From: Megascapheus bottae | Taxonomy: Eukaryota > Chordata > Mammalia > Rodentia > Geomyidae | DNA length: 64,000 bases | Assembly (NCBI GenBank): GCA_024803745.1 | Contig: JANJXV010001829.1 | Coordinates: 1 to 64,000 of the forward strand | Direction of reading: 5' to 3' | In this document: in pieces, positions 10,501 through 57,830 of the stretch | Layout of the letters: each line of letters opens with the position of its first letter | How positions within the stretch are numbered: the first letter of the stretch is position 1 | Position numbers and translations under genes: made by a program | Notes under the pieces: model-generated | Database searches by the model: none | The model's input: the letters and a program-made list of their open reading frames with translations, nothing else | Told to the model about the DNA's origin: nothing

Positions 10501-10713
10501 CATGGAATGGAGGTGTGTGAAGTCAAAGAATGGAGGTGTGTGAAGTCAAACAATAACGGTGTCTGAAGTCACAGAATGGAGGTGTGTGAACTCATAGAAT
10601 GGAGGTGTTTGAAGTCATGGAATGGAGGTGTGTGATGTCAAAGAATGGAGGTGTGTGAAGTCAAACAATAACGGTGTCTGAAGTCACAGAATGGAGGTGT
10701 GTGAAATCACAAA

Positions 10714-32654: not shown

Positions 32655-35600
32655 ATGGAGGTTTGTGAATTCAAAAAGGTGGTGTGTAGTGTCACAAATG
32701 GAGGTTTGTTAACTCATAGAGTGGAGGTGTGTGAAGTCAAAGAATGGAGGTGTGTGAAGTCATCGAATGGAGGTGTGGGAAGTCATGGAATGGAGGTGTG
32801 TGAAGTCACAGAATGGAGGTGTGTGAAGTCAGAATGGAGATGTGTGAAGTCATAGAATGGAGGTGTGTGAAGTCAGAATGGAGGTGTGTGAACTCATAGA
32901 TTGGAGGTGTGTGAAGTCACAGTGGAGGTGTGTGAAGTCATAGAATGCAGGTGTGTGAAGTCACAGAATCGAGGTGTGTGAAGTCATAGAATGGAGCTGT
33001 GTGAAGTCAGATTGGAGGTGTGTGAAGTCACAGAGTGGAGGTGTGTGAACTCAGAATGGAGGTATGTGAAGTCACAGAATGGAGGTGTGTGAAGTCATAA
33101 AATGGAGGTGTGTGAAGTCATAGAATGGAGGTGTGTGAAGTCATGATGTAGGGGTGTGAAGTCACAGAATGGAGGTGTGTGGAGTCACAGAATTGAGGTT
33201 TTTGAAGTCATAGAATGGAGGTGTGTGAAGTCATAAAATGGATGTTTGTGAAGTAAGAATGAAGGTGTGTTAAGTCATAGAATGGAGTTGTGAGAAGTCA
33301 CAGAATGGAGGTGTGTGAAGTCATAGAATGGAGCTGTGTGAAGTCAGAATGGAGGTGTGTGAAGTCATAGAATGGAGGTGTGTGAACTAACAATGGAGGT
33401 GTGTGAAGTCAAAGAATGGAGGTGTGTGAAGTCAAAGAATGGAAGTGTGTGAAGTCATAGAATGGAGGTGTGTGAAGTCATAGAATGGAGGTGTGTGAAG
33501 TCATAGAATGGAGGTGTGTGAAGTCACAGAATTGATGTTTGTGAAGTCAGAATGGAGGTGTGTGAAGTCGGAATGGAGGTTTGTGAAGTCATAGAATGGA
33601 GGTGTGTGAAGTCATAGAATGGAGGCGTGTGAAATCATACAATGGAGGTGTGTGAAGTCACCGAATTGATGTTTGTGAAGTCAGAATGCAGGTGTGTGAA
33701 GTCACAATGGAGGTGTGTGAATTCAAAGAATGGAGGTGTGTGAAGTCACAGAATTGATGTTTGTGAAGTCAGAATGGAGGTGTGTGAAGTCAGAATGGTG
33801 GTGTGTGAAGTCATAGAAAGGAGGTGTGTGAAGTCATAATGCAGGTGTGTGACCTCATAGAATGGAGATGTGTGAAGTCACAGAATGGAGGTGTGTGAAG
33901 TCATAGAATGGAGGTGTGTGAAGTCACAGAATGGAGGTGTGTGAAGTCATCGAATGGAGGTGTGTGATGTCATAGAATGGAGGTGTGTGAAGTCATAATG
34001 TAGGTGTGTGAAGTCACAGAATTGAGCTGTGTGAAGTAACAGAATGGAGGTGTTTGAAGTCATAGAATGAAGGTGTGTGAAGTCACAGAATGAAGGTGTG
34101 TTAAGTCACAGAATGGAGGTGTGTGAATTCAGAATGGAGGTGTGTGAAGTCACAGAATGGAGGTGTGTGAACTCACAATGGAGGTGTGTGAATTCATAGA
34201 ATGGAGGTGTGTGAACTCATAGAATGGAGGTGTGGGAAGTCATGGAATGGAGGTGCGTGAAGTCAAAAATAGAGGTGTGTGAAGTCAAACAATAAAGGTG
34301 TGTGAAGTCACAGAACGGAGGTGTGTGAAGTCACATAATGGAGTTGTGTGAAGTCATAGAAAGGAGGTGTGTGAAGTCAGAGAATGGAGGTGTGTGAAGT
34401 CACAGAATGGAGGTGTGTGAACTCACAATGGAGGTGTGTGAAGTCATAGAATGGAGGTGTGTGTGGTCAAAAAATAAAGGAGTGTGAAGTCACAGAATGG
34501 AGGTCTGGAAGTCATAGAATGGAGGTGTGTTAAGTCACAGAATGGAGGTGTGTGAAGTCAGAGAATGGAGGTGTGTGAACTCAGAATGGAGGTGTGTGAA
34601 GTCACAGAATGGAGATTTGTGAAGTCATAGAATGGAGGTGTGTGAAGTCATGGAATGTAGGTGTGTGAAGTCACAGAATGGAGGTGTGTGAAGTCAGAAT
34701 GTAGATGTGTGAAGTCATAGAATGGAGGTGTGTGAAGTCAGAATGGAGGTGCGTGAAGTCACAGAATTGATGTTTGTGAAGTCAGAATGGAGGTGTGTGA
34801 AGTCACAGAACGGAGATTTGTGAAGTCATAGAACGGAGGTGCGTGAAGTCATAGAATGGATGTTTCTGAAGTAAGAATGAAGGTGTGTGAAGTCATAGAA
34901 TGGAGGTGTGTGAAGTCAAAATGGAGGTGTGTGAACTCATAGAATGGAGGCGTGTGAAATCATACAATGGAGGTGTGTGAAGTCACCGAATTGATGTTTG
35001 TGAAGTCAGAATGCAGGTGTGTGAAGTCACAATGGAGGTGTGTGAATTCAAAGAATGGAGGTGTGTGAAGTCACAGAATTGATGTTTGTGAAGTCAGAAT
35101 GGAGGTGTGTGAAGTCAGAATGGTGGTGTGTGAAGTCATAGAAAGGAGGTGTGTGAAGTCATAATGCAGGTGTGTGACCTCATAGAATGGAGATGTGTGA
35201 AGTCACAGAATGGAGGTGTGTGAAGTCATAGAATGGAGGTGTGTGAAGTCACAGAATGGAGGTGTGTGAAGTCATCGAATGGAGGTGTGTGAAGTCATAG
35301 AATGGAGGTGTGTGAAGTCATAATGTAGGTGTGTGAAGTCACAGAATTGAGCTGTGTGAAGTAACAGAATGGAGGTGTTTGAAGTCATAGAATGAAGGTG
35401 TGTGAAGTCACAGAATGAAGGTGTGTTAAGTCACAGAATGGAGGTGTGTGAATTCAGAATGGAGGTGTGTGAAGTCACAGAATGGAGGTGTGTGAACTCA
35501 CAATGGAGGTGTGTGAAGTCAAAGAATGGAGGTGTGTGAAGTCATAGAATGGAGGTGTGTGAAGTCACGGAATTGATGTTTGTGAACTCAGAATGGAGGT

Positions 35601-38600
35601 GTGTGAAGTCAGAATGGAGGTTTGTGAAGTCATAGAATGGAGGTGTGTGAAGTCATAGAATGGAGGCGTGTGTAATCATACAATGGAGGTGTGTGAAGTC
35701 ACCGAATTGATGTTTGTGAAGTCAGAATGGAGGTGTGTGAAGTCAGAATGGAGGGGTGTGAAGTCATATAAAGGAGGTGTGTGAAGTCATAATGCAGGTG
35801 TGTGACCTCATAGAATGGAGATGTGTGAAGTCACAGAATGGAGGTGTGTGAAGTCATAGAATGGAGGTGTGTGAAGTCATAGACTTGAGGTGTGTAAAGT
35901 CATAGAATGGAGGTGTGTGAAGTCATAGAATGGAGGTGTGTGAAGTCACAGAATGGAGGTGTGTGAAGTCACAGAATGGAGGTGTGTGAAGTCACAGAAT
36001 GGAGGTGTGTGAACTCACAATGGAGGTGTGTGAAGTCAAAGAATGGAGGTGTGTGAAGTCATAGAATGGAAGTGTGTGAAGTCATAGAATGGAGGTGTGT
36101 GAAGCCAGAATTGAGGTTTGTGAAGTCACAGAATTGAGGAGTGTGAACTCAGAATGGAGGTGTGTGAAGTCACAGAATGGAGGTTTGTGAAGTCATAGAA
36201 TGTAGGTGTGTGAAGTCATAGAATGGATGTTTCTGAAGTAGAATGAAGGTGTGTGAAGTCATAGAATGGAGGTGTGTGAAGTCAAAATGGAGGTGTGTGA
36301 ACTCATAAAATGGAGATGTGTGAAGTTATGGAATGGAGGTGCGTGAAGTCCAAAAACGGAGTTGTGTGAAGTCAAACAATGGTGGTGTGTGAAGTCACAG
36401 AACGGAGGTGTGTGAAGTCACATAATGGAGTTGTGTGAAGTCATAGAATGGAGGTGTGTGAAGTCACAGAATGGAGGTGTGTGAAGTCACAGAATGGAGG
36501 TGTGTGAACTCACAATGGAGGTGTGTGAAGTCATAGAATGGAGGTGTGTGTAGTCAAAAAATAAAGGAGTGTGAAGTCACAGAATGGAGGTCTGGAAGTC
36601 ATAGAATGGAGGTGTGTTAAGTCACAGAATGGAGGTGTGTGAAATCAGAGAATGGAGGTGTGTGAACTCAGAATGGAGGTGTGTGAAGTCACAGAATGGA
36701 GATTTGTGAAGTCATAGAATGGAGGTGTGTGAAGTCATGGAAAGGAGGTGTGTGAAGTCACAGAATGGAGGTGTGTGAAGTCAGAATGTAGATGTGTGAA
36801 GTCATAGAATGGAGGTGTGTGAAGTCAGAATGGAGGTGCGTGAAGTCACAGAATTGATGTTTGTGAAGTCAGAATGGAGGTGTGTGAAGTCACAGAACGG
36901 AGATTTGTGAAGTGATAGAACGGAGGTTCGTGAAGTCATAGAATGGATGTTTGTGAAGTAAGAATGAAGGTGTGTTAAGTCATAGAATGGAGGTGTGAGA
37001 AGTCACAGAATGGAGGTGTGTGAAGTCATAGAATGGAGCTGTGTGAAGTCAGAATGGAGGTGTGTGAAGTCATAGAATGGAGGTGTGTGAACTAACAATG
37101 GAGGTGTGTGAAGTCAAAGAATGGAGGTGTGTGAAGTCAAAGAATGGAAGTGTGTGAAGTCATAGAATGGAGGTGTGTGAAGTCATAGAAAGGAGGTGTG
37201 TGAAGTCATAGAATGGAGGTGTGTGAAGTCACAGAATTGATGTTTGTGAAGTCAGAATGGAGGTGTGTGAAGTCGGAATGGAGGTTTGTGAAGTCATAGA
37301 ATGGAGGTGTGTGAAGTCATAGAATGGAGGCGTGTGAAATCATACAATGGAGGTGTCTGAAGTCACCGAATTGATGTTTGTGAAGTCAGAATGCAGGTGT
37401 GTGAAGTCACAATGGAGGTGTGTGAATTCAAAGAATGGAGGTGTGTGAAGTCACAGAATTGATGTTTGTGAAGTCAGAATGGAGGTGTGTGAAGTCAGAA
37501 TGGTGGTGTGTGAAGTCATAGAAAGGAGGTGTGTGAAGTCATAATGCAGGGGTGTGACCTCATAGAATGGAGATGTGTGAAGTCACAGAATGGAGGTGTG
37601 TGAAGTCAGAGAATGGAGGTGTGTGAAGTCACAGAATGGAGGTGTGTGAAGTCATCGAATGAAGGTGTGTGAACTCACAGAATGAACGTGTGTTAAGTCA
37701 CAGAATGGAGGTGTGTGAATTCAGAATGGAGGTGTGTGAAGTCACAGAATGGAGGTGTGTGAACTCACAATGGAGGTGTGTGAAGTCAAAGAATGGAGGT
37801 GTGTGAAGTCATAGAATGGAGGTGTGTGAAGTCACGGAATTGATGTTTGTGAACTCAGAATGGAGGTGTGTGAAGTCAGAATGGAGGTTTGTGAAGTCAT
37901 AGAATGGAGGTGTGTGAAGTCATAGAATGGAGGCGTGTGTAATCATACAATGGAGGTGTGTGAAGTCACCGAATTGATGTTTGTGAAGTCAGAATGGAGG
38001 TGTGTGAAGTCAGAATGGAGGTGTGTGAAGTCATATAAAGGAGGTGTGTGAAGTCATAATGCAGGTGTGTGACCTCATAGAATGGAGATGTGTGAAGTCA
38101 CAGAATGGAGGTGTGTGAAGTCATAGAATGGATATTTCTGAAGTAGAATGAAGGTGTGTGAAGTCATAGAATGGAGGTGTGTGAAGTCAAAATGGAGGTG
38201 TCTGAACTCATAAAATGGAGATGTGTGAAGTCATGGAATGGAGGTGCATGAAGTCCAAAAATGGAGGTGTGTGAAGTCAAACAATGGTGGTGTGTGAAGT
38301 CACAGAACGGAGGTGTGTGAAGTCACATAATGGAGTTGTGTGAAGTCATAGAATGGAGGTGTGTGAAGTCACAGAATGGAGGTGTGTGAAGTCACAGAAT
38401 GGAGGTGTGTGAACTCACAATGGAGGTGTGTGAAGTCATAGAATGGAGGTGTGTGTAGTCAAAAAATAATGGAGTGTGAAGTCACAGAATGGAGGTCTGG
38501 AAGTCATAGAATGGAGGTGTGTTAAGTCACAGAATGGAGGTGTGTGAAGTCAGAGAATGGAGGTGTGTGAACTCAGAATGGAGGTGTGTGAAGTCACAGA

Positions 38601-39816
38601 ATGGAGATTTGTGAACTCATAGAATGGAGGTGTGTGAAGTCATGGAATGGAGGTGTGTGAAGTCACAGAATGGAGGTGTGTGAAGTCAGAATGTAGATGT
38701 GTGAAGTCATAGAATGGAGGTGTGTGAAGTCAGAATGGAGGTGCGTGAAGTCACAGAATTGATGTTTGTGAAGTCAGAATGGAGGTGTGTGAAGTCACAG
38801 AACGGAGATTTGTGAAGTCATAGAACGGAGGTTCGTGAAGTCATAGAATGGATGTTTCTGAAGTAAGAATGAAGGTGTGTGAAGTCATAGAATGGAGGTG
38901 TGTGAAGTCAAAATGGAGGTGTGTGAATTCATAGAATGGAGCTGTGTGAACTCATAGAATGGAGGTGTGGGAAGTCATGGAATGGAGGTGCGTGAAGTCA
39001 AAAATAGAGGTGTGAGAAGTCAAACAATAAAGGTGTGTGAAGTCACAGAACAGAGGTGTGTGAAGTCACATAATGGAGTTGTGTGAAGTCATAGAAAGGA
39101 GGTGTGTGAAGTCAGAGAATGGAGGTGTGTGAAGTCACAGAATGGAGGTGTGTGAACTCACAATGGAGGTGTGTGAAGTCATAGAATGGAGGTGTGTGTG
39201 GTCAAAAAATAAAGGAGTGTGAAGTCACAGAATGGAGGTCTGGAAGTCATAGAATGGAGGTGTGTTAAGTCACAGAATGGAGGTGTGTGAAGTCAGAGAA
39301 TGGAGGTGTGTGAACTCAGAATGGAGGTGTGTGAAGTCACAGAATGGAGATTTGTGAAGTCATAGAATGGAGGTGTGTGAAGTCATGGAATGGAGGTGTG
39401 TGAAGTCACAGAATGGATGTGTGTGAAGTCAGAATGTAGATGTGTGAAGTCATAGAATGGAGGTGTGTGAAGTCAGAATGGAGGTGCGTGAAGTCACAGA
39501 ATTGATGTTTGTGAAGTCAGAATGGAGGTGTGTGAAGTCACAGAACGGAGATTTGTGAAGTCATAGAACGGAGGTGCGTGAAGTCATAGAATGGATGTTT
39601 CTGAAGTAAGAATGAAGGTGTGTGAAGTCATAGAATGGAGGTGTGTGAAGTCAAAATGGAGGTGTGTGAACTCATAGAATGGAGGTGTGTGAACTCATAG
39701 AATGGAGGTGTGGGAAGTCATGGAATGGAGGTGCGTGAAGTCAAAAAATAGAGGTGTGTGAAGTCAAAAAATAAAGGTGTGTGAAGTCACAGAATGGAGG
39801 TGTGTGAAATCACAGA
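32655..39816 (+). repeat. HOR copy, 7162 bp, mosaic
   Basis: It starts with an L1 that differs at one base (GTGAATTCAAAAAGG). Three copies of the same body follow, separated by pieces of the 744-bp module. The GGCGTGTGAAATC marker is at 33624, 34949 and 37329 (spacings 1325 and 2380). Jumps between body and module are visible near 34190, 34945, 36300, 36945 and 38110. From 38110 the sequence is already in register with the 4775-bp HOR. The excess length over the previous copy is about 1.9 kb. Confidence 0.83.
38110..39816 (+). repeat. 4775-bp HOR, leading partial copy
   Basis: Periodicity of about 4775 starts near 38110: GTAGTCAAAA 38456/43229 (4773, a 2-bp indel difference) and ATGGATGTGTG 39413/44188/48963 (exactly 4775). 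Left of 38110 the sequence belongs to the preceding body. It holds two 744-bp modules (ATAATGG at 38327 and 39070) and corresponds to the right part of a beta half. Confidence 0.85.
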
Positions 39817-42408
39817 ATGGAGGTTTGTGAAGTCAAAAAGGTGGTGTGTAGTGTCACAAATGGAGGTTTGTTAACTCATAGAGTGGAGGTGTGTGAAGTC
39901 AAAGAATGGAGGTGTGTGAAGTCATCGAATGGAGGTGTGGGAAGTCATGGAATGGAGGTGTGTGAAGTCACAGAATGGAGGTGTGTGAAGTCAGAATGGA
40001 GATGTGTGAAGTCATAGAATGGAGGTGTGTGAAGTCAGAATGGAGGTGTGTGAACTCATAGATTGGAGGTGTGTGAAGTCACAGTGGAGGTGTGTGAAGT
40101 CATAGAATGCAGGTGTGTGAAGTCACAGAATCGAGGTGTGTGAAGTCATAGAATGGAGGTGTGTGAAGTCATAGAATGGAGGTGTGTGAAGCCAGAATTG
40201 AGGTTTGTGAAGTCACAGAATTGAGGTGTGTGAACTCAGAATGGAGGTGTGTGAAGTCACAGAATGGAGGTTTGTGAAGTCATAGAATGTAGGTGTGTGA
40301 AGTCATAGAATGGATGTTTCTGAAGTAGAATGAAGGTGTGTGAAGTCATAGAATGGAGGTGTGTGAAGTCAAAATGGAGGTGTGTGAACTCATAAAATGG
40401 AGATGTGTGAAGTCATGGAATGGAGGTGCGTGAAGTCCAAAAATGGAGGTGTGTGAAGTCAAACAATGGTGGTGTGTGAAGTCACAGAACGGAGGTGTGT
40501 GAAGTCACATAATGGAGTTGTGTGAAGTCATAGAATGGAGGTGTGTGAAGTCACAGAATGGAGGTGTGTGAAGTCACAGAATGGAGGTGTGTGAACTCAC
40601 AATGGAGGTGTGTGAAGTCATAGAATGGAGGTGTGTGTAGTCAAAAAATAATGGAGTGTGAAGTCACAGAATGGAGGTCTGGAAGTCATAGAATGGAGGT
40701 GTGTTAAGTCACAGAATGGAGGTGTGTGAAGTCAGAGAATGGAGGTGTGTGAACTCAGAATGGAGGTGTGTGAAGTCACAGAATGGAGATTTGTGAACTC
40801 ATAGAATGGAGGTGTGTGAAGTCATGGAATGGAGGTGTGTGAAGTCACAGAATGGAGGTGTGTGAAGTCAGAATGTAGATGTGTGAAGTCATAGAATGGA
40901 GGTGTGTGAAGTCAGAATGGAGGTGCGTGAAGTCACAGAATTGATGTTTGTGAAGTCAGAATGGAGGTGTGTGAAGTCACAGAACGGAGATTTGTGAAGT
41001 CATAGAACGGAGGTTCGTGAAGTCATAGAATGGATGTTTCTGAAGTAAGAATGAAGGTGTGTGAAGTCATAGAATGGAGGTGTGTGAAGTCAAAATGGAG
41101 GTGTGTGAATTCATAGAATGGAGGTGTGTGAACTCATAGAATGGAGGTGTGGGAAGTCATGGAATGGAGGTGCGTGAAGTCAAAAAATAGAGGTGTGTGA
41201 AGTCAAACTATAAAGGTGTGTGAAGTCACAGAACGGAGGTGTGTGAAGTCACATAATGGAGTTGTGTGAAGTCATAGAAAGGAGGTGTGTGAAGTCAGAG
41301 AATGGAGGTGTGTGAAGTCACAGAATGGAGGTGTGTGAACTCACAATGGAGGTGTGTGAAGTCATAGAATGGAGGTGTGTGTGGTCAAAAAATAAAGGAG
41401 TGTGAAGTCACAGAATGGAGGTCTGGAAGTCATAGAATGGAGGTGTGTTAAGTCACAGAATGGAGGTGTGTGAAGTCAGAGAATGGAGGTGTGTGAACTC
41501 AGAATGGAGGTGTGTGAAGTCACAGAATGGAGATTTGTGAACTCATAGAATGGAGGTGTGTGAAGTCATGGAATGGAGGTGTGTGAAGTCACAGAATGGA
41601 GGTGTGTGAAGTCAGAATGTAGATGTGTGAAGTCATAGAATGGAGGTGTGTGAAGTCAGAATGGAGGTGCGTGAAGTCACAGAATTGATGTTTGTGAAGT
41701 CAGAATGGAGGTGTGTGAAGTCACAGAACGGAGATTTGTGAAGTCATAGAACGGAGGTTCGTGAAGTCATAGAATGGATGTTTCTGAAGTAAGAATGAAG
41801 GTGTGTGAAGTCATAGAATGGAGGTGTGTGAAGTCAAAATGGAGGTGTGTGAATTCATAGAATGGAGGTGTGTGAACTCATAGAATGGAGGTGTGGGAAG
41901 TCATGGAATGGAGGTGCGTGAAGTCAAAAAATAGAGGTGTGTGAAGTCAAACAATAAAGGTGTGTGAAGTCACAGAACGGAGGTGTGTGAAGTCACATAA
42001 TGGAGTTGTGTGAAGTCATAGAAAGGAGGTGTGTGAAGTCAGAGAATGGAGGTGTGTGAAGTCACAGAATGGAGGTGTGTGAACTCACAATGGAGGTGTG
42101 TGAAGTCATAGAATGGAGGTGTGTGTGGTCAAAAAATAAAGGAGTGTGAAGTCACAGAATGGAGGTCTGGAAGTCATAGAATGGAGGTGTGTTAAGTCAC
42201 AGAATGGAGGTGTGTGAAGTCAGAGAATGGAGGTGTGTGAACTCAGAATGGAGGTGTGTGAAGTCACAGAATGGAGATTTGTGAAGTCATAGAATGGAGG
42301 TGTGGGAAGTCATGGAATGGAGGTGCGTGAAGTCAAAAAATAGAGGTGTGTGAAGTCAAAAAATAAAGGTGTGTGAAGTCACAAAATGGAGGTGTGTGAA
42401 ATCACAGA
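39817..42408 (+). repeat. 4775-bp HOR: alpha half 1 (2592 bp)
   Basis: L1 followed by three 744-bp modules (ATAATGG at 40509, 41253, 41997). The last module is cut short by 335 bp, ending GAGATTTGTGAAGTCATAG, then GTGTGGGAAGTCATGG. This fits 2183 + 744 - 335 = 2592. It carries the alpha marker CATAAAATGGAGATG (about 40394). It lacks the GAGCTGTGTG unit that the other alpha and beta halves have right after L1. Confidence 0.9.
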
Positions 42409-44591
42409 ATGGAGGTTTGTGAAGTCAAAAAGGTGGTGTGTAGTGTCACAAATGGAGGTTTGTTAACTCATAGAGTGGAGGTGTGTGAAGTCAAAGAATG
42501 GAGGTGTGTGAAGTCATCGAATGGAGGTGTGGGAAGTCATGGAATGGAGGTGTGTGAAGTCACAGAATGGAGGTGTGTGAAGTCAGAATGGAGATGTGTG
42601 AAGTCATAGAATGGAGGTGTGTGAAGTCAGAATGGAGGTGTGTGAACTCATAGATTGGAGGTGTGTGAAGTCACAGTGGAGGTGTGTGAAGTCATAGAAT
42701 GCAGGTGTGTGAAGTCACAGAATCGAGGTGTGTGAAGTCATAGAATGGAGCTGTGTGAAGTCATAGAATGGAGGTGTGTGAAGCCAGAATTGAGGTTTGT
42801 GAAGTCACAGAATTGAGGTGTGTGAACTCAGAATGGAGGTGTGTGAAGTCACAGAATGGAGGTTTGTGAAGTCATAGAATGTAGGTGTGTGAAGTCATAG
42901 AATGGATGTTTCTGAAGTAGAATGAAGGTGTGTGAAGTCATAGAATGGAGGTGTGTGAAGTCAAAATGGAGGTGTGTGAACTCATAACATGGAGATGTGT
43001 GAAGTCATGGAATGGAGGTGCGTGAAGTCCAAAAATGGAGGTGTGTGAAGTCAAACAATGGTGGTGTGTGAAGTCACAGAACGGAGGTGTGTGAAGTCAC
43101 ATAATGGAGTTGTGTGAAGTCATAGAATGGAGGTGTGTGAAGTCACAGAATGGAGGTGTGTGAAGTCACAGAATGGAGGTGTGTGAACTCACAATGGAGG
43201 TGTGTGAAGTCATAGAATGGAGGTGTGTGTAGTCAAAAAATAATGGAGTGTGAAGTCACAGAATGGAGGTCTGGAAGTCATAGAATGGAGGTGTGTTAAG
43301 TCACAGAATGGAGGTGTGTGAAGTCAGAGAATGGAGGTGTGTGAACTCAGAATGGAGGTGTGTGAAGTCACAGAATGGAGATTTGTGAACTCATAGAATG
43401 GAGGTGTGTGAAGTCATGGAATGGAGGTGTGTGAAGTCACAGAATGGAGGTGTGTGAAGTCAGAATGTAGATGTGTGAAGTCATAGAATGGAGGTGTGTG
43501 AAGTCAGAATGGAGGTGCGTGAAGTCACAGAATTGATGTTTGTGAAGTCAGAATGGAGGTGTGTGAAGTCACAGAACGGAGATTTGTGAAGTCATAGAAC
43601 GGAGGTTCGTGAAGTCATAGAATGGATGTTTCTGAAGTAAGAATGAAGGTGTGTGAAGTCATAGAATGGAGGTGTGTGAAGTCAAAATGGAGGTGTGTGA
43701 ATTCATAGAATGGAGGTGTGTGAACTCATAGAATGGAGGTGTGGGAAGTCATGGAATGGAGGTGCGTGAAGTCAAAAAATAGAGGTGTGTGAAGTCAAAC
43801 TATAAAGGTGTGTGAAGTCACAGAACGGAGGTGTGTGAAGTCACATAATGGAGTTGTGTGAAGTCATAGAAAGGAGGTGTGTGAAGTCAGAGAATGGAGG
43901 TGTGTGAAGTCACAGAATGGAGGTGTGTGAACTCACAATGGAGGTGTGTGAAGTCATAGAATGGAGGTGTGTGTGGTCAAAAAATAAAGGAGTGTGAAGT
44001 CACAGAATGGAGGTCTGGAAGTCATAGAATGGAGGTGTGTTAAGTCACAGAATGGAGGTGTGTGAAGTCAGAGAATGGAGGTGTGTGAACTCAGAATGGA
44101 GGTGTGTGAAGTCACAGAATGGAGATTTGTGAAGTCATAGAATGGAGGTGTGTGAAGTCATGGAATGGAGGTGTGTGAAGTCACAGAATGGATGTGTGTG
44201 AAGTCAGAATGTAGATGTGTGAAGTCATAGAATGGAGGTGTGTGAAGTCAGAATGGAGGTGCGTGAAGTCACAGAATTGATGTTTGTGAAGTCAGAATGG
44301 AGGTGTGTGAAGTCACAGAACGGAGATTTGTGAAGTCATAGAACGGAGGTGCGTGAAGTCATAGAATGGATGTTTCTGAAGTAAGAATGAAGGTGTGTGA
44401 AGTCATAGAATGGAGGTGTGTGAAGTCAAAATGGAGGTGTGTGAACTCATAGAATGGAGGTGTGTGAACTCATAGAATGGAGGTGTGGGAAGTCATGGAA
44501 TGGAGGTGCGTGAAGTCAAAAAATAGAGGTGTGTGAAGTCAAAAAATAAAGGTGTGTGAAGTCACAGAATGGAGGTGTGTGAAATCACAGA
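42409..44591 (+). repeat. 4775-bp HOR: beta half 1 (2183 bp)
   Basis: L1 followed by two 744-bp modules (ATAATGG at 43101 and 43845). It carries the beta marker CATAACATGGAGATG (about 42986). The second module is complete, with 747 bp to the next L1, and holds ATGGATGTGTG at 44188, a variant seen only at the end of beta halves. Confidence 0.9.
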
Positions 44592-47183
44592 ATGGAGGTT
44601 TGTGAAGTCAAAAAGGTGGTGTGTAGTGTCACAAATGGAGGTTTGTTAACTCATAGAGTGGAGGTGTGTGAAGTCAAAGAATGGAGGTGTGTGAAGTCAT
44701 CGAATGGAGGTGTGGGAAGTCATGGAATGGAGGTGTGTGAAGTCACAGAATGGAGGTGTGTGAAGTCAGAATGGAGATGTGTGAAGTCATAGAATGGAGG
44801 TGTGTGAAGTCAGAATGGAGGTGTGTGAACTCATAGATTGGAGGTGTGTGAAGTCACAGTGGAGGTGTGTGAAGTCATAGAATGCAGGTGTGTGAAGTCA
44901 CAGAATCGAGGTGTGTGAAGTCATAGAATGGAGCTGTGTGAAGTCATAGAATGGAGGTGTGTGAAGCCAGAATTGAGGTTTGTGAAGTCACAGAATTGAG
45001 GTGTGTGAACTCAGAATGGAGGTGTGTGAAGTCACAGAATGGAGGTTTGTGAAGTCATAGAATGTAGGTGTGTGAAGTCATAGAATGGATGTTTCTGAAG
45101 TAGAATGAAGGTGTGTGAAGTCATAGAATGGAGGTGTGTGAAGTCAAAATGGAGGTGTGTGAACTCATAAAATGGAGATGTGTGAAGTCATGGAATGGAG
45201 GTGCGTGAAGTCCAAAAATGGAGGTGTGTGAAGTCAAACAATGGTGGTGTGTGAAGTCACAGAACGGAGGTGTGTGAAGTCACATAATGGAGTTGTGTGA
45301 AGTCATAGAATGGAGGTGTGTGAAGTCACAGAATGGAGGTGTGTGAAGTCACAGAATGGAGGTGTGTGAACTCACAATGGAGGTGTGTGAAGTCATAGAA
45401 TGGAGGTGTGTGTAGTCAAAAAATAATGGAGTGTGAAGTCACAGAATGGAGGTCTGGAAGTCATAGAATGGAGGTGTGTTAAGTCACAGAATGGAGGTGT
45501 GTGAAGTCAGAGAATGGAGGTGTGTGAACTCAGAATGGAGGTGTGTGAAGTCACAGAATGGAGATTTGTGAACTCATAGAATGGAGGTGTGTGAAGTCAT
45601 GGAATGGAGGTGTGTGAAGTCACAGAATGGAGGTGTGTGAAGTCAGAATGTAGATGTGTGAAGTCATAGAATGGAGGTGTGTGAAGTCAGAATGGAGGTG
45701 CGTGAAGTCACAGAATTGATGTTTGTGAAGTCAGAATGGAGGTGTGTGAAGTCACAGAAAGGAGATTTGTGAAGTCATAGAACGGAGGTTCGTGAAGTCA
45801 TAGAATGGATGTTTCTGAAGTAAGAATGAAGGTGTGTGAAGTCATAGAATGGAGGTGTGTGAAGTCAAAATGGAGGTGTGTGAATTCATAGAATGGAGGT
45901 GTGTGAACTCATAGAATGGAGGTGTGGGAAGTCATGGAATGGAGGTGCGTGAAGTCAAAAAATAGAGGTGTGTGAAGTCAAACTATAAAGGTGTGTGAAG
46001 TCACAGAACGGAGGTGTGTGAAGTCACATAATGGAGTTGTGTGAAGTCATAGAAAGGAGGTGTGTGAAGTCAGAGAATGGAGGTGTGTGAAGTCACAGAA
46101 TGGAGGTGTGTGAACTCACAATGGAGGTGTGTGAAGTCATAGAATGGAGGTGTGTGTGGTCAAAAAATAAAGGAGTGTGAAGTCACAGAATGGAGGTCTG
46201 GAAGTCATAGAATGGAGGTGTGTTAAGTCACAGAATGGAGGTGTGTGAAGTCAGAGAATGGAGGTGTGTGAACTCAGAATGGAGGTGTGTGAAGTCACAG
46301 AATTGAGATTTGTGAACTCATAGAATGGAGGTGTGTGAAGTCATGGAATGGAGGTGTGTGAAGTCACAGAATGGAGGTGTGTGAAGTCAGAATGTAGATG
46401 TGTGAAGTCATAGAATGGAGGTGTGTGAAGTCAGAATGAAGGTGCGTGAAGTCACAGAATTGATGTTTGTGAAGTCAGAATGGAGGTGTGTGAAGTCACA
46501 GAACGGAGATTTGTGAAGTCATAGAACGGAGGTTCGTGAAGTCATAGAATGGATGTTTCTGAAGTAAGAATGAAGGTGTGTGAAGTCATAGAATGGAGGT
46601 GTGTGAAGTCAAAATGGAGGTGTGTGAATTCATAGAATGGAGGTGTGTGAACTCATAGAATGGAGGTGTGGGAAGTCATGGAATGGAGGTGCGTGAAGTC
46701 AAAAAATAGAGGTGTGTGAAGTCAAACAATAAAGGTGTGTGAAGTCACAGAACGGAGGTGTGTGAAGTCACATAATGGAGTTGTGTGAAGTCATAGAAAG
46801 GAGGTGTGTGAAGTCAGAGAATGGAGGTGTGTGAAGTCACAGAATGGAGGTGTGTGAACTCACAATGGAGGTGTGTGAAGTCATAGAATGGAGGTGTGTG
46901 TGGTCAAAAAATAAAGGAGTGTGAAGTCACAGAATGGAGGTCTGGAAGTCATAGAATGGAGGTGTGTTAAGTCACAGAATGGAGGTGTGTGAAGTCAGAG
47001 AATGGAGGTGTGTGAACTCAGAATGGAGGTGTGTGAAGTCACAGAATGGAGATTTGTGAAGTCATAGAATGGAGGTGTGGGAAGTCATGGAATGGAGGTG
47101 CGTGAAGTCAAAAAATAGAGGTGTGTGAAGTCAAAAAATAAAGGTGTGTGAAGTCACAGAATGGAGGTGTGTGAAATCACAGA
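44592..47183 (+). repeat. 4775-bp HOR: alpha half 2 (2592 bp)
   Basis: In register with 39817 at +4775 (ATAATGG 45284 versus 40509). It has the alpha marker CATAAAATGG (about 45169). It shares with alpha half 3 a private AGAAAGGAGATTT (about 45757), where alpha half 1 has AGAACGGAGATTT, so halves 2 and 3 are closer to each other. A private AGAATTGAGATTT occurs near 46305. Confidence 0.9.
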
Positions 47184-49366
47184 ATGGAGGTTTGTGAAGT
47201 CAAAAAGGTGGTGTGTAGTGTCACAAATGGAGGTTTGTTAACTCATAGAGTGGAGGTGTGTGAAGTCAAAGAATGGAGGTGTGTGAAGTCATCGAATGGA
47301 GGTGTGGGAAGTCATGGAATGGAGGTGTGTGAAGTCACAGAATGGAGGTGTGTGAAGTCAGAATGGAGATGTGTGAAGTCATAGAATGGAGGTGTGTGAA
47401 GTCAGAATGGAGGTGTGTGAACTCATAGATTGGAGGTGTGTGAAGTCACAGTGGAGGTGTGTGAAGTCATAGAATGCAGGTGTGTGAAGTCACAGAATCG
47501 AGGTGTGTGAAGTCATAGAATGGAGCTGTGTGAAGTCATAGAATGGAGGTGTGTGAAGCCAGAATTGAGGTTTGTGAAGTCACAGAATTGAGGTGTGTGA
47601 ACTCAGAATGGAGGTGTGTGAAGTCACAGAATCGAGGTTTGTGAAGTCATAGAATGTAGGTGTGTGAAGTCATAGAATGGATGTTTCTGAAGTAGAATGA
47701 AGGTGTGTGAAGTCATAGAATGGAGGTGTGTGAAGTCAAAATGGAGGTGTGTGAACTCATAACATGGAGATGTGTGAAGTCATGGAATGGAGGTGCGTGA
47801 AGTCCAAAAATGGAGGTGTGTGAAGTCAAACAATGGTGGTGTGTGAAGTCACAGAACGGAGGTGTGTGAAGTCACATAATGGAGTTGTGTGAAGTCATAG
47901 AATGGAGGTGTGTGAAGTCACAGAATGGAGGTGTGTGAAGTCACAGAATGGAGGTGTGTGAACTCACAATGGAGGTGTGTGAAGTCATAGAATGGAGGTG
48001 TGTGTAGTCAAAAAATAATGGAGTGTGAAGTCACAGAATGGAGGTCTGGAAGTCATAGAATGGAGGTGTGTTAAGTCACAGAATGGAGGTGTGTGAAGTC
48101 AGAGAATGGAGGTGTGTGAACTCAGAATGGAGGTGTGTGAAGTCACAGAATGGAGATTTGTGAACTCATAGAATGGAGGTGTGTGAAGTCATGGAATGGA
48201 GGTGTGTGAAGTCACAGAATGGAGGTGTGTGAAGTCAGAATGTAGATGTGTGAAGTCATAGAATGGAGGTGTGTGAAGTCAGAATGGAGGTGCGTGAAGT
48301 CACAGAATTGATGTTTGTGAAGTCAGAATGGAGGTGTGTGAAGTCACAGAACGGAGATTTGTGAAGTCATAGAACGGAGGTTCGTGAAGTCATAGAATGG
48401 ATGTTTCTGAAGTAAGAATGAAGGTGTGTGAAGTCATAGAATGGAGGTGTGTGAAGTCAAAATGGAGGTGTGTGAATTCATAGAATGGAGGTGTGTGAAC
48501 TCATAGAATGGAGGTGTGGGAAGTCATGGAATGGAGGTGCGTGAAGTCAAAAAATAGAGGTGTGTGAAGTCAAACTATAAAGGTGTGTGAAGTCACAGAA
48601 CGGAGGTGTGTGAAGTCACATAATGGAGTTGTGTGAAGTCATAGAAAGGAGGTGTGTGAAGTCAGAGAATGGAGGTGTGTGAAGTCACAGAATGGAGGTG
48701 TGTGAACTCACAATGGAGGTGTGTGAAGTCATAGAATGGAGGTGTGTGTGGTCAAAAAATAAAGGAGTGTGAAGTCACAGAATGGAGGTCTGGAAGTCAT
48801 AGAATGGAGGTGTGTTAAGTCACAGAATGGAGGTGTGTGAAGTCAGAGAATGGAGGTGTGTGAACTCAGAATGGAGGTGTGTGAAGTCACAGAATGGAGA
48901 TTTGTGAAGTCATAGAATGGAGGTGTGTGAAGTCATGGAATGGAGGTGTGTGAAGTCACAGAATGGATGTGTGTGAAGTCAGAATGTAGATGTGTGAAGT
49001 CATAGAATGGAAGTGTGTGAAGTCAGAATGGAGGTGCGTGAAGTCACAGAATTGATGTTTGTGAAGTCAGAATGGAGGTGTGTGAAGTCACAGAACGGAG
49101 ATTTGTGAAGTCATAGAACGGAGGTGCGTGAAGTCATAGAATGGATGTTTCTGAAGTAAGAATGAAGGTGTGTGAAGTCATAGAATGGAGGTGTGTGAAG
49201 TCAAAATGGAGGTGTGTGAACTCATAGAATGGAGGTGTGTGAACTCATAGAATGGAGGTGTGGGAAGTCATGGAATGGAGGTGCGTGAAGTCAAAAAATA
49301 GAGGTGTGTGAAGTCAAAAAATAAAGGTGTGTGAAGTCACAGAATGGAGGTGTGTGAAATCACAGA
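47184..49366 (+). repeat. 4775-bp HOR: beta half 2 (2183 bp)
   Basis: In register with 42409 at +4775. Beta marker CATAACATGG is at about 47761. ATGGATGTGTG is at 48963. It has a private AATCGAGGTTTG near 47632 and a private GGAAGTGTGTG near 49010. Confidence 0.9.
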
Positions 49367-51958
49367 ATGGAGGTTTGTGAAGTCAAAAAGGTGGTGTGTA
49401 GTGTCACAAATGGAGGTTTGTTAACTCATAGAGTGGAGGTGTGTGAAGTCAAAGAATGGAGGTGTGTGAAGTCATCGAATGGAGGTGTGGGAAGTCATGG
49501 AATGGAGGTGTGTGAAGTCACAGAATGGAGGTGTGTGAAGTCAGAATGGAGATGTGTGAAGTCATAGAATGGAGGTGTGTGAAGTCAGAATGGAGGTGTG
49601 TGAACTCATAGATTGGAGGTGTGTGAAGTCACAGTGGAGGTGTGTGAAGTCATAGAATGCAGGTGTGTGAAGTCACAGAATCGAGGTGTGTGAAGTCATA
49701 GAATGGAGCTGTGTGAAGTCATAGAATGGAGGTGTGTGAAGCCAGAATTGAGGTTTGTGAAGTCACAGAATTGAGGTGTGTGAACTCAGAATGGAGGTGT
49801 GTGAAGTCACAGAATGGAGGTTTGTGAAGTCATAGAATGTAGGTGTGTGAAGTCATAGAATGGATGTTTCTGAAGTAGAATGAAGGTGTGTGAAGTCATA
49901 GAATGGAGGTGTGTGAAGTCAAAATGGAGGTGTGTGAACTCATAAAATGGAGATGTGTGAAGTCATGGAATGGAGGTGCGTGAAGTCCAAAAATGGAGGT
50001 GTGTGAAGTCAAACAATGGTGGTGTGTGAAGTCACAGAACGGAGGTGTGTGAAGTCACATAATGGAGTTGTGTGAAGTCATAGAATGGAGGTGTGTGAAG
50101 TCACAGAATGGAGGTGTGTGAAGTCACAGAATGGAGGTGTGTGAACTCACAATGGAGGTGTGTGAAGTCATAGAATGGAGGTGTGTGTAGTCAAAAAATA
50201 ATGGAGTGTGAAGTCACAGAATGGAGGTCTGGAAGTCATAGAATGGAGGTGTGTTAAGTCACAGAATGGAGGTGTGTGAAGTCAGAGAATGGAGGTGTGT
50301 GAACTCAGAATGGAGGTGTGTGAAGTCACAGAATGGAAATTTGTGAACTCATAGAATGGAGGTGTGTGAAGTCATGGAATGGAGGTGTGTGAAGTCACAG
50401 AATGGAGGTGTGTGAAGTCAGAATGTAGATGTGTGAAGTCATAGAATGGAGGTGTGTGAAGTCAGAATGGAGGTGCGTGAAGTCACAGAATTGATGTTTG
50501 TGAAGTCAGAATGGAGGTGTGTGAAGTCACAGAAAGGAGATTTGTGAAGTCATAGAACGGAGGTTCGTGAAGTCATAGAATGGATGTTTCTGAAGTAAGA
50601 ATGAAGGTGTGTGAAGTCATAGAATGGAGGTGTGTGAAGTCAAAATGGAGGTGTGTGAATTCATAGAATGGAGGTGTGTGAACTCATAGAATGGAGGTGT
50701 GGGAAGTCATGGAATGGAGGTGCGTGAAGTCAAAAAATAGAGGTGTGTGAAGTCAAACTATAAAGGTGTGTGAAGTCACAGAACGGAGGTGTGTGAAGTC
50801 ACATAATGGAGTTGTGTGAAGTCATAGAAAGGAGGTGTGTGAAGTCAGAGAATGGAGGTGTGTGAAGTCACAGAATGGAGGTGTGTGAACTCACAATGGA
50901 GGTGTGTGAAGTCATAGAATGGAGGTGTGTGTGGTCAAAAAATAAAGGAGTGTGAAGTCACAGAATGGAGGTCTGGAAGTCATAGAATGGAGGTGTGTTA
51001 AGTCACAGAATGGAGGTGTGTGAAGTCAGAGAATGGAGGTGTGTGAACTCAGAATGGAGGTGTGTGAAGTCACAGAATGGAGATTTGTGAACTCATAGAA
51101 TGGAGGTGTGTGAAGTCATGGAATGGAGGTGTGTGAAGTCACAGAATGGAGGTGTGTGAAGTCAGAATGTAGATGTGTGAAGTCATAGAATGGAGGTGTG
51201 TGAAGTCAGAATGGAGGTGCGTGAAGTCACAGAATTGATGTTTGTGAAGTCAGAATGGAGGTGTGTGAAGTCACAGAACGGAGATTTGTGAAGTCATAGA
51301 ACGGAGGTTCGTGAAGTCATAGAATGGATGTTTCTGAAGTAAGAATGAAGGTGTGTGAAGTCATAGAATGGAGGTGTGTGAAGTCAAAATGGAGGTGTGT
51401 GAATTCATAGAATGGAGGTGTGTGAACTCATAGAATGGAGGTGTGGGAAGTCATGGAATGGAGGTGCGTGAAGTCAAAAAATAGAGGTGTGTGAAGTCAA
51501 ACAATAAAGGTGTGTGAAGTCACAGAACGGAGGTGTGTGAAGTCACATAATGGAGTTGTGTGAAGTCATAGAAAGGAGGTGTGTGAAGTCAGAGAATGGA
51601 GGTGTGTGAAGTCACAGAATGGAGGTGTGTGAACTCACAATGGAGGTGTGTGAAGTCATAGAATGGAGGTGTGTGTGGTCAAAAAATAAAGGAGTGTGAA
51701 GTCACAGAATGGAGGTCTGGAAGTCATAGAATGGAGGTGTGTTAAGTCACAGAATGGAGGTGTGTGAAGTCAGAGAATGGAGGTGTGTGAACTCAGAATG
51801 GAGGTGTGTGAAGTCACAGAATGGAGATTTGTGAAGTCATAGAATGGAGGTGTGGGAAGTCATGGAATGGAGGTGCGTGAAGTCAAAAAATAGAGGTGTG
51901 TGAAGTCAAAAAATAAAGGTGTGTGAAGTCACAGAATGGAGGTGTGTGAAATCACAGA
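49367..51958 (+). repeat. 4775-bp HOR: alpha half 3 (2592 bp)
   Basis: In register with 44592 at +4775. It has the alpha marker near 49944 and the shared AGAAAGGAGATTT near 50532. A private GGAAATTTGTG is near 50336 in place of GGAGATTTGTG. Confidence 0.9.
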
Positions 51959-54730
51959 ATGGAGGTTTGTGAAGTCAAAAAGGTGGTGTGTAGTGTCACA
52001 AATGGAGGTTTGTTAACTCATAGAGTGGAGGTGTGTGAAGTCAAAGAATGGAGGTGTGTGAAGTCATCGAATGGAGGTGTGGGAAGTCATGGAATGGAGG
52101 TGTGTGAAGTCACAGAATGGAGGTGTGTGAAGTCAGAATGGAGATGTGTGAAGTCATAGAATGGAGGTGTGTGAAGTCAGAATGGAGGTGTGTGAACTCA
52201 TAGATTGGAGGTGTGTGAAGTCACAGTGGAGGTGTGTGAAGTCATAGAATGCAGGTGTGTGAAGTCACAGAATCGAGGTGTGTGAAGTCATAGAATGGAG
52301 CTGTGTGAAGTCATAGAATGGAGGTGTGTGAAGCCAGAATTGAGGTTTGTGAAGTCACAGAATTGAGGTGTGTGAACTCAGAATGGAGGTGTGTGAAGTC
52401 ACAGAATGGAGGTTTGTGAAGTCATAGAATGTAGGTGTGTGAAGTCATAGAATGGATGTTTCTGAAGTAGAATGAAGGTGTGTGAAGTCATAGAATGGAG
52501 GTGTGTGAAGTCAAAATGGAGGTGTGTGAACTCATAACATGGAGATGTGTGAAGTCATGGAATGGAGGTGCGTGAAGTCCAAAAATGGAGGTGTGTGAAG
52601 TCAAACAATGGTGGTGTGTGAAGTCACAGAACGGAGGTGTGTGAAGTCACATAATGGAGTTGTGTGAAGTCATAGAATGGAGGTGTGTGAAGTCACAGAA
52701 TGGAGGTGTGTGAAGTCACAGAATGGAGGTGTGTGAACTCACAATGGAGGTGTGTGAAGTCATAGAATGGAGGTGTGTGTAGTCAAAAAATAATGGAGTG
52801 TGAAGTCACAGAATGGAGGTCTGGAAGTCATAGAATGGAGGTGTGTTAAGTCACAGAATGGAGGTGTGTGAAGTCAGAGAATGGAGGTGTGTGAACTCAG
52901 AATGGAGGTGTGTGAAGTCACAGAATGGAGATTTGTGAACTCATAGAATGGAGGTGTGTGAAGTCATGGAATGGAGGTGTGTGAAGTCACAGAATGGAGG
53001 TGTGTGAAGTCAGAATGTAGATGTGTGAAGTCATAGAATGAAGGTGTGTGAAGTCATAGAATGGAGGTGTGTGAAGTCAAAATGGAGGTGTGTGAATTCA
53101 TAGAATGGAGGTGTGTGAACTCATAGAATGGAGGTGTGGGAAGTCATGGAATGGAGGTGCGTGAAGTCAAAAAATAGAGGTGTGTGAAGTCAAACTATAA
53201 AGGTGTGTGAAGTCACAGAACGGAGGTGTGTGAAGTCACAAAATGGAGTTGTGTGAAGTCATAGAAAGGAGGTGTGTGAAGTCAGAGAATGGAGGTGTGT
53301 GAAGTCACAGAATGGAGGTGTGTGAACTCACAATGGAGGTGTGTGAAGTCATAGAATGGAGGTGTGTGTGGTCAAAAAATAAAGGAGTGTGAAGTCACAG
53401 AATGGAGGTCTGGAAGTCATAGAATGGAGGTGTGTTAAGTCACAGAATGGAGGTGTGTGAAGTCAGAGAATGGAGGTGTGTGAACTCAGAATGGAGGTGT
53501 GTGAAGTCACAGAATGGAGATTTGTGAACTCATAGAATGGAGGTGTGTGAAGTCATGGAATGGAGGTGTGTGAAGTCACAGAATGGAGGTGTGTGAAGTC
53601 AGAATGTAGATGTGTGAAGTCATAGAATGGAGGTGTGTGAAGTCAGAATGGAGGTGCGTGAAGTCACAGAATTGATGTTTGTGAAGTCAGAATGGAGGTG
53701 TGTGAAGTCACAGAACGGAGATTTGTGAAGTCATAGAACGGAGGTTCGTGAAGTCATAGAATGGATGTTTCTGAAGTAAGAATGAAGGTGTGTGAAGTCA
53801 TAGAATGGAGGTGTGTGAAGTCAAAATGGAGGTGTGTGAATTCATAGAATGGAGGTGTGTGAACTCATAGAATGGAGGTGTGGGAAGTCATGGAATGGAG
53901 GTGCGTGAAGTCAAAAAATAGAGGTGTGTGAAGTCAAACAATAAAGGTGTGTGAAGTCACAGAACGGAGGTGTGTGAAGTCACATAATGGAGTTGTGTGA
54001 AGTCATAGAAAGGAGGTGTGTGAAGTCAGAGAATGGAGGTGTGTGAAGTCACAGAATGGAGGTGTGTGAACTCACAATGGAGGTGTGTGAAGTCATAGAA
54101 TGGAGGTGTGTGTGGTCAAAAAATAAAGGAGTGTGAAGTCACAGAATGGAGGTCTGGAAGTCATAGAATGGAGGTGTGTTAAGTCACAGAATGGAGGTGT
54201 GTGAAGTCAGAGAATGGAGGTGTGTGAACTCAGAATGGAGGTGTGTGAAGTCACAGAATGGAGATTTGTGAAGTCATAGAATGGAGGTGTGTGAAGTCAT
54301 GGAATGGAGGTGTGTGAAATCACAGAATGGAGGTGTGTGAAGTCAGAATGTAGATGTGTGAAGTCATAGAATGGAGGTGTGTGAAGTCAGAATGGAGGTG
54401 CGTGAAGTCACAGAATTGATGTTTGTGAAGTCAGAATGGAGGTGTGTGAAGTCACAGAACGGAGATTTGTGAAGTCATAGAACGGAGGTGCGCGAAGTCA
54501 TAGAATGGATGTTTCTGAAGTAAGAATGAAGGTGTGTGAAGTCATAGAATGGAGGTGTGTGAAGTCAAAATGGAGGTGTGTGAACTCATAGAATGGAGGT
54601 GTGTGAACTCATAGAATGGAGGTGTGGGAAGTCATGGAATGGAGGTGCGTGAAGTCAAAGAATAGAGGTGTGTGAAGTCAAAAAATAAAGGTGTGTGAAG
54701 TCACAGAATGGAGGTGTGTGAAATCACAGA
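51959..54730 (+). repeat. 4775-bp HOR: beta half 3, expanded (2772 bp)
   Basis: It starts as a beta half (CATAACATGG near 52536) but holds three 744-bp modules: marker at 52651, 53240 (variant CACAAAATGG) and 53986. The middle module has lost 155 bp: near 53040 GTCATAGAATG joins AAGGTGTGTG, skipping what lies at 48266-48420 in the equivalent copy. The length is exactly 2183 + 744 - 155. This ends the regular 4775-bp series. Confidence 0.9.
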
Positions 54731-57700: not shown

Positions 57701-57830
57701 GTGTGAACTCATAGAATGGAGGTGTGGGAAGTCATGGAATGGAGGTGCGTGAAGTCAAAAAATAGAGGTGTGTGAAGTCAAACAATAAAGTTGTGTGAAG
57801 TCACAGAATGGAGGTGTGTGAAATCACAGA
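54731..57830 (+). repeat. HOR copy of the body type, 3100 bp
   Basis: L1, then a body that matches 32655 onward with constant offset 22076 (TGTAGGGGTG 33147/55223). Body variants such as ACCGAATTGATG and TGTGACCTC follow. Near 56995 a GAATGAATGTGTGTGAACTC junction shows loss of about two units relative to 36240. One 744-type module follows (ATAATGG at about 57131). Confidence 0.85.

What the first reader, a model, noticed from the sequence alone, without database searches (positions are those of the whole stretch)
38110..54730. Two-part higher-order repeat: 2592 + 2183 = 4775 bp, with alpha- and beta-specific bases
L1 start distances alternate 2592, 2183, 2592, 2183, 2592. The halves are told apart by a base: CATAAAATGG near 40394, 45169 and 49944 (alpha) versus CATAACATGG near 42986, 47761 and 52536 (beta). 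ATGGATGTGTG occurs at 39413, 44188 and 48963, only at beta ends. The dimer was therefore formed first and amplified afterwards, much like the HOR logic of centromeric alphoid DNA but built from a 23-bp founder.
Basis: seen in the sequence. Interest (0 to 1): 0.75.

Follow-up and report, generated by a model that had tools for sequence, protein, structure and literature searches.

The report
Local dimer in 23-bp mammalian satellite
A mammal's long tandem array of a 23-letter DNA repeat holds a 4,775-letter two-part super-repeat, present about three times here and one to two-and-a-half times in three near-identical arrays of the same genome, which looks like ordinary copy-number turnover in repetitive DNA.

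Summary
The window is wholly 23-bp satellite; lag 4775 gives 99.84% identity over 39000-53056, and half-unit starts alternate 2592/2183 exactly. The markers are specific only inside the block: CATAAAATGG occurs at 33 places in the window, ATGGATGTGTG at 13. Genome-wide the 'alpha' base is the default (6,237 of 6,251 exact 33-mers).

Three other contigs carry the same half-units between near-identical flanks, with different dimer number: C268 about 1, C326 2, C533 2.5, window contig 3. One base (40396) separates 9 alpha from 9 beta halves. Another (40985) marks 5 of 5 later alphas and 0 of 4 first alphas, so the dimer and its first duplication predate the split of these arrays. Most other alpha/beta differences mark which 744-bp module is present. 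The predicted alpha and beta clades of modules are not found; modules group by position. All 10,712 monomers read on six contigs are 20-24 bp long, so rearrangements were in register.

Best explanation: recent homologous out-of-register exchange (unequal exchange or break-induced replication) in a large satellite. A known kind; species not identified; no evidence of centromere function.

The parts
1..64000 (+). 23-bp satellite, consensus GTGTGTGAAGTCATAGAATGGAG; 2,845 monomers (one 7-bp edge piece included), all one orientation, otherwise 20-24 bp long, 400 distinct
   Evidence: no ORF of 100 aa or more; no Rfam family at gathering score
38267..53056 (+). 4,775-bp two-part higher-order repeat, about 3.1 copies
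   Evidence: lag 4775 at 99.84% over 39000-53056; left extension with one 1-bp indel; looser homology back to about 38,108
38267..39608 (+). right part of an earlier beta-like half-unit (beta0): short-beta module arrangement but 'A' at the marker site (38209, just left of the strict block)
   Evidence: same on C268 and C326
39609..42200 (+). alpha1 (2592 bp = 744+744+1104)
42201..44383 (+). beta1 (2183 bp = 744+1439)
44384..46975 (+). alpha2
   Evidence: 40985-equivalent = A
46976..49158 (+). beta2
49159..51750 (+). alpha3
   Evidence: 40985- and 40788-equivalents = A
51751..53056 (+). beta3, cut off where the periodicity ends
   Evidence: module spacing 589 instead of 744
40373..42358 (+). 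744-bp modules (33 monomers), about 2.7 copies, in alpha1; also 42965-44610, 45148-47133, 47740-49385, 49923-51908, 53035-54749
   Evidence: lag-744 runs, 97.1-98.6% identity in this block
40396..40396 (+). the one substitution that separates alpha (A) from beta (C) halves
   Evidence: 9 of 9 alpha A, 9 of 9 beta C on four contigs
40985..40985 (+). substitution marking later alphas (C in alpha1; A at 45760 and 50535)
   Evidence: A in 5 of 5 later alphas, 0 of 4 first alphas

Best explanation
This is a local higher-order repeat inside a very large 23-bp satellite of a mammal, made by homologous, in-register, out-of-place exchange (unequal sister or homologue exchange, or break-induced replication). 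Shown: nested levels (23 bp, then 744 bp = 33 monomers, then half-units of 744-bp modules plus a 1104- or 1439-bp linker, then the dimer); dimer number differs between four near-identical arrays; every monomer read keeps the 23-bp register. Inferred: an ancestral array with beta0-alpha1-beta-alpha2-beta; a module loss turned the long beta (about 2926 bp) into the 2183-bp beta; the window's array then duplicated the 4775-bp dimer, C533 carries a version of about 5518 bp, and C268 lost or never gained alpha2. No specific cellular role is needed; the array is most likely constitutive (probably pericentromeric) heterochromatin.
For: Nested identity: 73.5% at lag 23 over the window; in the block 97.1-98.6% at 744, 99.0-99.1% between halves over 2,410 bp, 99.84% between dimers. 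Same half-unit spacings on C268 (2592, 2183, 2927), C326 (2592, 2182, 2592, 2927) and C533 (2592, 2924, 2592, 2926, 2592), with flanking spacings shared with the window contig (2028, 2720, 5039, 5265/5266 and 3303, 3527/3528 on C268). Anchored stretches are 99.93% identical to C268 (8 mismatches in 11,706), 99.84% to C533 (7 in 4,379), 99.77% to C326 (7 in 3,039). The nine alpha half-units form a fork (96/83) and the five later alphas a weaker fork inside it (95/74). 0 of 10,712 interior monomers in the stretches read on six contigs (241,110 bases) lie outside 20-24 bp; the same script flagged 33 of 40 planted random-breakpoint deletions. All four combinations of marker base and module loss occur (beta0 A/short, beta C/short, long beta C/long, alpha A/long), as exchange among half-units would give. 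The unequal-exchange and break-induced-replication models of satellite growth are set out in PMC8997354 (passages).
Against: Unequal exchange and break-induced replication are not told apart. C1829 is a 71-kb contig that is satellite from end to end, so its copy number has no unique flank. Whether the four contigs are alleles or different chromosomes is unknown, and C1758, which shows no dimer in the 30,000 of 78,268 bases read, is as close to C1829 (99.86% over 2,189) as C533 is. The anchors are shared exact 40-mers, which favours high identities. The beta 33-mer also occurs twice on C2221 in another context (no module match), so that base is not unique to this dimer. The 744-bp module could have been lost more than once, which would weaken the four-combination argument. 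One module pair outside the block (30351-31842) is 99.2% identical, so modules elsewhere have duplicated recently too.
Confidence: 0.85

Rival explanations
1. Assembly artefact: the assembler duplicated or misjoined a segment of the satellite on a small unplaced contig.
For: The window contig is 71,110 bp, entirely satellite; dimer copies are 99.84% identical; no reads were at hand to test depth or spanning.
Against: The same half-units recur on three other contigs with their own copy number and own variants; the window's copies carry private differences and a 1-bp indel.
Confidence: 0.1
2. End-joining or non-homologous segmental duplication built the dimer.
For: Half-unit lengths differ by 409 bp and linkers by 335 bp, which are not multiples of 23.
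Against: All 10,712 interior monomers read are 20-24 bp long, while 33 of 40 planted random-breakpoint deletions were visible. The odd lengths can come from the 21-bp monomer variants (632 of 2,845).
Confidence: 0.03
3. The dimer is a functional centromeric repeat kept by selection, as the reader's comparison with alphoid DNA might suggest.
For: Very large arrays of one satellite with higher-order repeats are typical of many mammalian centromeric regions (PMC8997354 passages, and recalled).
Against: No CENP-B box core on either strand of the window; about 1 to 3 dimers per array read, not hundreds; the exact beta 33-mer is at 14 places in the genome. In horse, the 23-bp satellite 2PI is not enriched with CENP-A (PMC4847189 passages), though its relation to this satellite is not shown.
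Confidence: 0.04

Closest known systems
Higher-order repeats with nested sub-blocks ('cascading HORs') in human alpha satellite, PMC11050224 (abstract and outline seen)
   Same: Tandem multi-monomer units containing smaller repeated sub-blocks, with variant copies.
   Different: 23-bp instead of about 171-bp founder; 212 monomers per unit; about 1 to 3 copies per array read instead of hundreds (429 copies of a 15mer in that abstract); no known link to centromere function.
Horse satellite 2PI (e4/1 family), 23-bp repeat, PMC2820525 and PMC4847189 (passages seen)
   Same: 23-bp unit, abundant in a mammal; 2PI lies at centromeric/pericentromeric and terminal sites in Equus.
   Different: The 2PI letters were not at hand, so identity was not tested; globin exons of this genome do not settle whether it is Equus.
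Bovine satellite 1.706 (about 2.35-kb repeat built from 23-bp prototypes), recalled, not seen in any call
   Same: Long repeat built from a 23-bp founder, as recalled.
   Different: Sequence relation not tested.

Membership tests
Higher-order repeat (general sense) | multi-monomer block repeated in tandem, block identity far above monomer identity | tested here: met
   99.84% at lag 4775 in the block against 73.5% at lag 23
Higher-order repeat (general sense) | more than chance order of monomers | tested here: met
   0.178 against at most 0.039 in 200 shuffles
Higher-order repeat, Willard type | all monomers inside one unit are distinct types | tested here: not met
   744-bp modules recur inside each unit at 97.1-98.6%, so it is of the nested or cascading type
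Higher-order repeat, Willard type | large homogeneous array of the unit | tested here: not met
   about 3.1 copies in the window, about 1 to 2.5 in the stretches of C268, C326, C533
Alpha satellite | about 171-bp monomers | tested here: not met
   23-bp monomers
Alpha satellite | CENP-B boxes in part of the monomers | tested here: not met
   0 matches to TTCGnnnnAnnCGGG on both strands of the window (motif recalled)
Centromeric satellite | CENP-A occupancy | not testable with these tools
   needs ChIP-seq or CUT&RUN
Equus 2PI satellite | 23-bp unit | tested here: met
   2PI unit length from PMC2820525 passages
Equus 2PI satellite | sequence identity to 2PI (AY029359) | not testable with these tools
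   the 2PI letters appear in none of the passages seen
Equus 2PI satellite | genome belongs to Equus | tested here: inconclusive
   alpha-globin exon: entries that I recall as horse and donkey rank first among single-chain entries (137.4 and 137.3 bits); beta-globin exon: pig ranks first (146.1), an entry that I recall as horse lower (143.2); none of the 3 + 5 matches printed as alignments is identical

The most novel reading that the evidence does not exclude
The same dimer sits at the same place in several large arrays, possibly on different chromosomes, and has expanded separately into a 4,775-bp and an about 5,518-bp version by strictly in-register exchange; this block would then be a mutation hot spot whose successive copy-number states can be read from a handful of bases.
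Probability: 0.3. Interest if true: 0.45.

Novelty: new member of a known kind. Interest (0 to 1): 0.3.

Why it matters
Satellite turnover is often argued from consensus sequences. Here four near-identical arrays of one genome can be compared base by base: one substitution marks the dimer's halves, another marks its first duplication, and module counts show later gains and losses. The absence of out-of-register monomers (0 of 10,712) argues that homology-directed exchange, not end joining, shapes this satellite. In kind it is an ordinary satellite.

Tried and rejected
Coding: no ORF of 100 aa or more in six frames, stop to stop. RNA families: none at gathering score. Phage records: no match to 2,001 bases of the block; plasmids: one 57-bp match at 86%, E 7e-6, taken as chance. 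Viral contigs and prokaryote genome contigs: 0 exact matches to one 36-base and one 24-base pattern. The consensus letters in held papers: 0 papers. Topic searches: one search listed 1 paper (PMC12722358, listing only, not read), one search listed 20 of 1,696 (none with the phrase '23-bp repeat'), one search listed 13; no listed title names a 23-bp mammalian satellite. The horse lead came from recall. The library holds only open-licence papers, so this is no proof that the satellite is unpublished.

Species: a mitochondrial contig of 16,962 bp with a vertebrate-code COX1 (Pfam check) and globin exons point to a mammal, but no species was reached; one search with a globin locus read on the wrong strand found nothing; a search for the mitochondrial length in print found nothing.

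Divergence from the monomer consensus shows no gradient along the window (1.42-1.70 edits per monomer in 4-kb bins). The first labels were set from the preceding spacing; this mislabelled C268_35554, whose sequence is beta, left 43 of 57 rows unlabelled, and two rows (C1829_51942, C533_28225) run across a break; with those labels alpha and beta each needed 2 changes. I therefore read the forks, not the label counts; the bootstrap of that tree had not settled. (right border of the block) scored only 37 of 3,786 candidates and did not list the query's own place, so it decides nothing. Of the 14 genome-wide places of the beta 33-mer, 9 lie in half-units read here, 2 (C2221) lie in another context, and 3 (C379, C767, C1755) were not read. 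One search lists only the first of its 6,251 places, all on C52.
Full report
WHAT WAS CHECKED. The whole window is one tandem array of a 23-bp repeat (GTGTGTGAAGTCATAGAATGGAG). It splits into 2,845 monomers, 400 of them distinct; 2,101 are 23 bp and 632 are 21 bp long, all in one orientation. GC skew is 0.64-0.72 throughout; CpG is at 0.20 of expectation; TGAAGTCA occurs 1,927 times on the + strand and never on the other. There is no ORF of 100 aa or more and no Rfam match at gathering score.

THE DIMER. Lag 4775 aligns 39000-48281 with 43775-53056 at 99.84% (15 mismatches in 9,282). Allowing one 1-bp indel, the block starts near 38,267 and ends at 53,056, about 3.1 copies. The shared 2,410-bp segment starts at 39609, 42201, 44384, 46976, 49159 and 51751: spacings 2592, 2183, 2592, 2183, 2592 (the last segment is cut at 53,056). 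In monomers the unit is 212 long. With monomers shuffled, the best match fraction over lags 20-1499 was at most 0.039 in 200 shuffles, against 0.178 observed; the longest run of identical monomers was 5 in 50 shuffles, against 61.

THE MARKERS. CATAACATGG occurs only at 42983, 47758 and 52533. CATAAAATGG occurs at 33 places and ATGGATGTGTG at 13; inside 39000-53056 they are at the three expected places each. In the whole genome the 33-mer around the first marker has 6,251 exact places with A or C, of which 14 have C. The 'alpha' base is therefore the common state and the 'beta' base a rare, probably derived one (inference).

INSIDE THE HALVES. Both halves are made of a 744-bp module (33 monomers; lag-744 runs in the block at 97.1-98.6%) and a linker. 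From module spacings: alpha = 744+744+1104 = 2592; beta = 744+1439 = 2183. On C533 twice (module spacings 742-744, 743, 1439), and once each on C268 and C326 (judged from the linker-probe spacing of 2927), there is a longer beta of 2924-2927 bp. So the short beta is the long form less one module, and the linker is 335 bp shorter in alpha. Eighteen half-units from four contigs were compared over 2,146 bp. Site 40396 is A in 9 of 9 alphas and C in 9 of 9 betas. Sites 41542, 41601 and 41759 have the beta base in 4 of 4 short betas and the alpha base in 4 of 4 long betas and in the cut-off last beta of the window, so they mark the missing module. Alpha to long beta is 2-8 differences in 2,146, alpha to alpha 0-8: the two sets overlap, and only 40396 parts them cleanly.

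OTHER ARRAYS OF THE SAME GENOME. The window is bases 1-64000 of contig C1829 (71,110 bp) of a 2.84-Gb, 2,786-contig genome. Using a 300-bp probe from the linker (39800-40099), one search gives these spacings. C1829: 6888, 2028, 2720, 5039, 5266, 7162, 2592, 2183, 2592, 2183, 2592, 2772, 3100, 3303, 3528, 4295. C268 (140000-189999): 2028, 2720, 5039, 5265, 2427, 6689, 2592, 2183, 2927, 3798, 3303, 3527. C533 (130000-169999): 4068, 7192, 2592, 2924, 2592, 2926, 2592, 786, 3732, 3237, 3528. C326 (570000-599999): 4068, 4522, 3570, 2592, 2182, 2592, 2927, 3844, 3237. C1758 (30,000 of 78,268 bases read) and C1187 (20,000 of 178,746 read) have the modules but no dimer there. Stretches of 500 bp or more anchored by exact shared unique 40-mers, a choice that favours high identity, are 99.93% identical between C1829 and C268 (8 in 11,706), 99.92% between C533 and C326 (2 in 2,406), 99.77-99.84% between the two pairs, 99.86% between C1829 and C1758 (3 in 2,189) and 99.33% between C1829 and C1187 (26 in 3,866). 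They are alleles or very recent copies; which, I cannot tell. C268 is satellite in all ten stretches read (five tiles, five samples), including both ends of its 1.42 Mb.

ORDER OF EVENTS. Site 40985 is A in 5 of 5 later alphas (C1829 two, C533 two, C326 one) and C in 4 of 4 first alphas. In the tree of 57 linker-anchored rows the nine alphas form a fork (96/83), the five later alphas a weaker fork inside it (95/74), and the first alphas of C533 and C326 pair (98/91); the bootstrap had not fully settled. So an alpha-beta-alpha order existed before these arrays parted. Left of the first alpha lies another short-beta half (beta0) with the A base, seen on C1829, C268 and C326; on C533 the 33-mer was not found there, but ATGGATGTGTG was. 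Marker base and module loss therefore occur in all four combinations, which exchange among half-units (or repeated module loss) explains.

THE 744-BP MODULE TREE. In a tree of the 28 modules found on C1829, alpha and beta each need 3 changes and are single groups in 0% of 200 bootstrap trees (though 10 and 9 of 500 shuffles were as low); by position (first, second, third) 3 changes suffice, shuffled mean 7.8, as low in 0 of 200. Only 2 of 21 inner branches are well supported. Within the block, identities of 97.1-98.6% (744), 99.0-99.1% (half-unit) and 99.84% (dimer) give the order module, half-unit, dimer; outside it one module pair (30351-31842) is 99.2% identical, so modules have also duplicated recently elsewhere.

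MECHANISM. All 10,712 interior monomers in the stretches read on six contigs (241,110 bases) are 20-24 bp long. In a control with 40 random-breakpoint deletions, 33 left a monomer outside 20-24 bp. Rearrangement therefore kept the 23-bp register, as homologous exchange or break-induced replication would and end joining would not. The two homologous routes are not told apart. Both are set out in PMC8997354 (passages); PMC11034957 was seen only in a search listing with the start of its abstract.

WHAT IT IS COMPARED WITH. It works like a higher-order repeat of the nested kind described as cascading in human alpha satellite (PMC11050224, abstract and outline). It is not alpha satellite: the monomer is 23 bp and there is no CENP-B core in the window. 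The best lead for the satellite itself is horse 2PI, a 23-bp repeat found with 37cen at Equus centromeres and chromosome ends (PMC2820525 passages) and not enriched with CENP-A (PMC4847189 passages). Its letters were not at hand, and the globin exons do not settle the genus: alpha ranks entries that I recall as horse and donkey first among single-chain entries, beta ranks pig first.

SIZE OF THE SATELLITE. In the stretches read the 33-mer occurs once per 4.0-4.3 kb. With 6,251 places this suggests some 26 Mb of this subfamily, an estimate that assumes the same density everywhere.

VERDICT. A real, recent, local higher-order repeat in a large mammalian satellite; the dimer-first order holds, the module-clade prediction does not, and the 'specific bases' are mostly module content. 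Ordinary in kind; the comparison across four arrays makes it a clean example.

Noticed in passing
window 1813-3928 / 4464-6579; 16745-19612 / 18773-21638; 7004-10420 / 13370-16787; 30969-34183 / 53044-56259; 57699-60057 / 61002-63362: Other local duplications with lags 2651, 2028, 6366, 22075 and 3303 (87-99% of monomers identical): the 4775-bp dimer is one of several.
   Followed up: partly
G000:C52, 354577-650624: Pairs of the 33-mer 1,854 bp apart occur 8 times in the part listed, and three places repeat 11,509 bp on (608898, 612552, 614406): another local multi-part repeat of the same satellite.
   Followed up: no
G000: C391, C387, C50, C121, C65, C185, C520, C255, C792, C300, C258, C109, C307, C470, C662: 15 near-full-length COX1 copies outside the 16,962-bp mitochondrial contig, with only TGA as in-frame stops: many large, little-decayed nuclear copies of mitochondrial DNA. 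One of them (C387) differs at 90 of 1,341 bases from the mitochondrial contig.
   Followed up: partly
L050 (G000:C326:400000-401500) and L049 (G000:C533:649927-651426): DNA that is not, or only partly, satellite inside or beside the arrays; by eye L050 resembles a retroviral envelope piece. Not tested.
   Followed up: no
G000:C4:395006-395670: A (TTAGGG)n block about 395 kb from the start of a 67.9-Mb contig; the genome has 20,831 + 21,139 matches to six such units.
   Followed up: no
window 1-64000: Extreme strand asymmetry (G 23,184 against C 4,632), with one repeat orientation in each of the 18 tiles read.
   Followed up: partly
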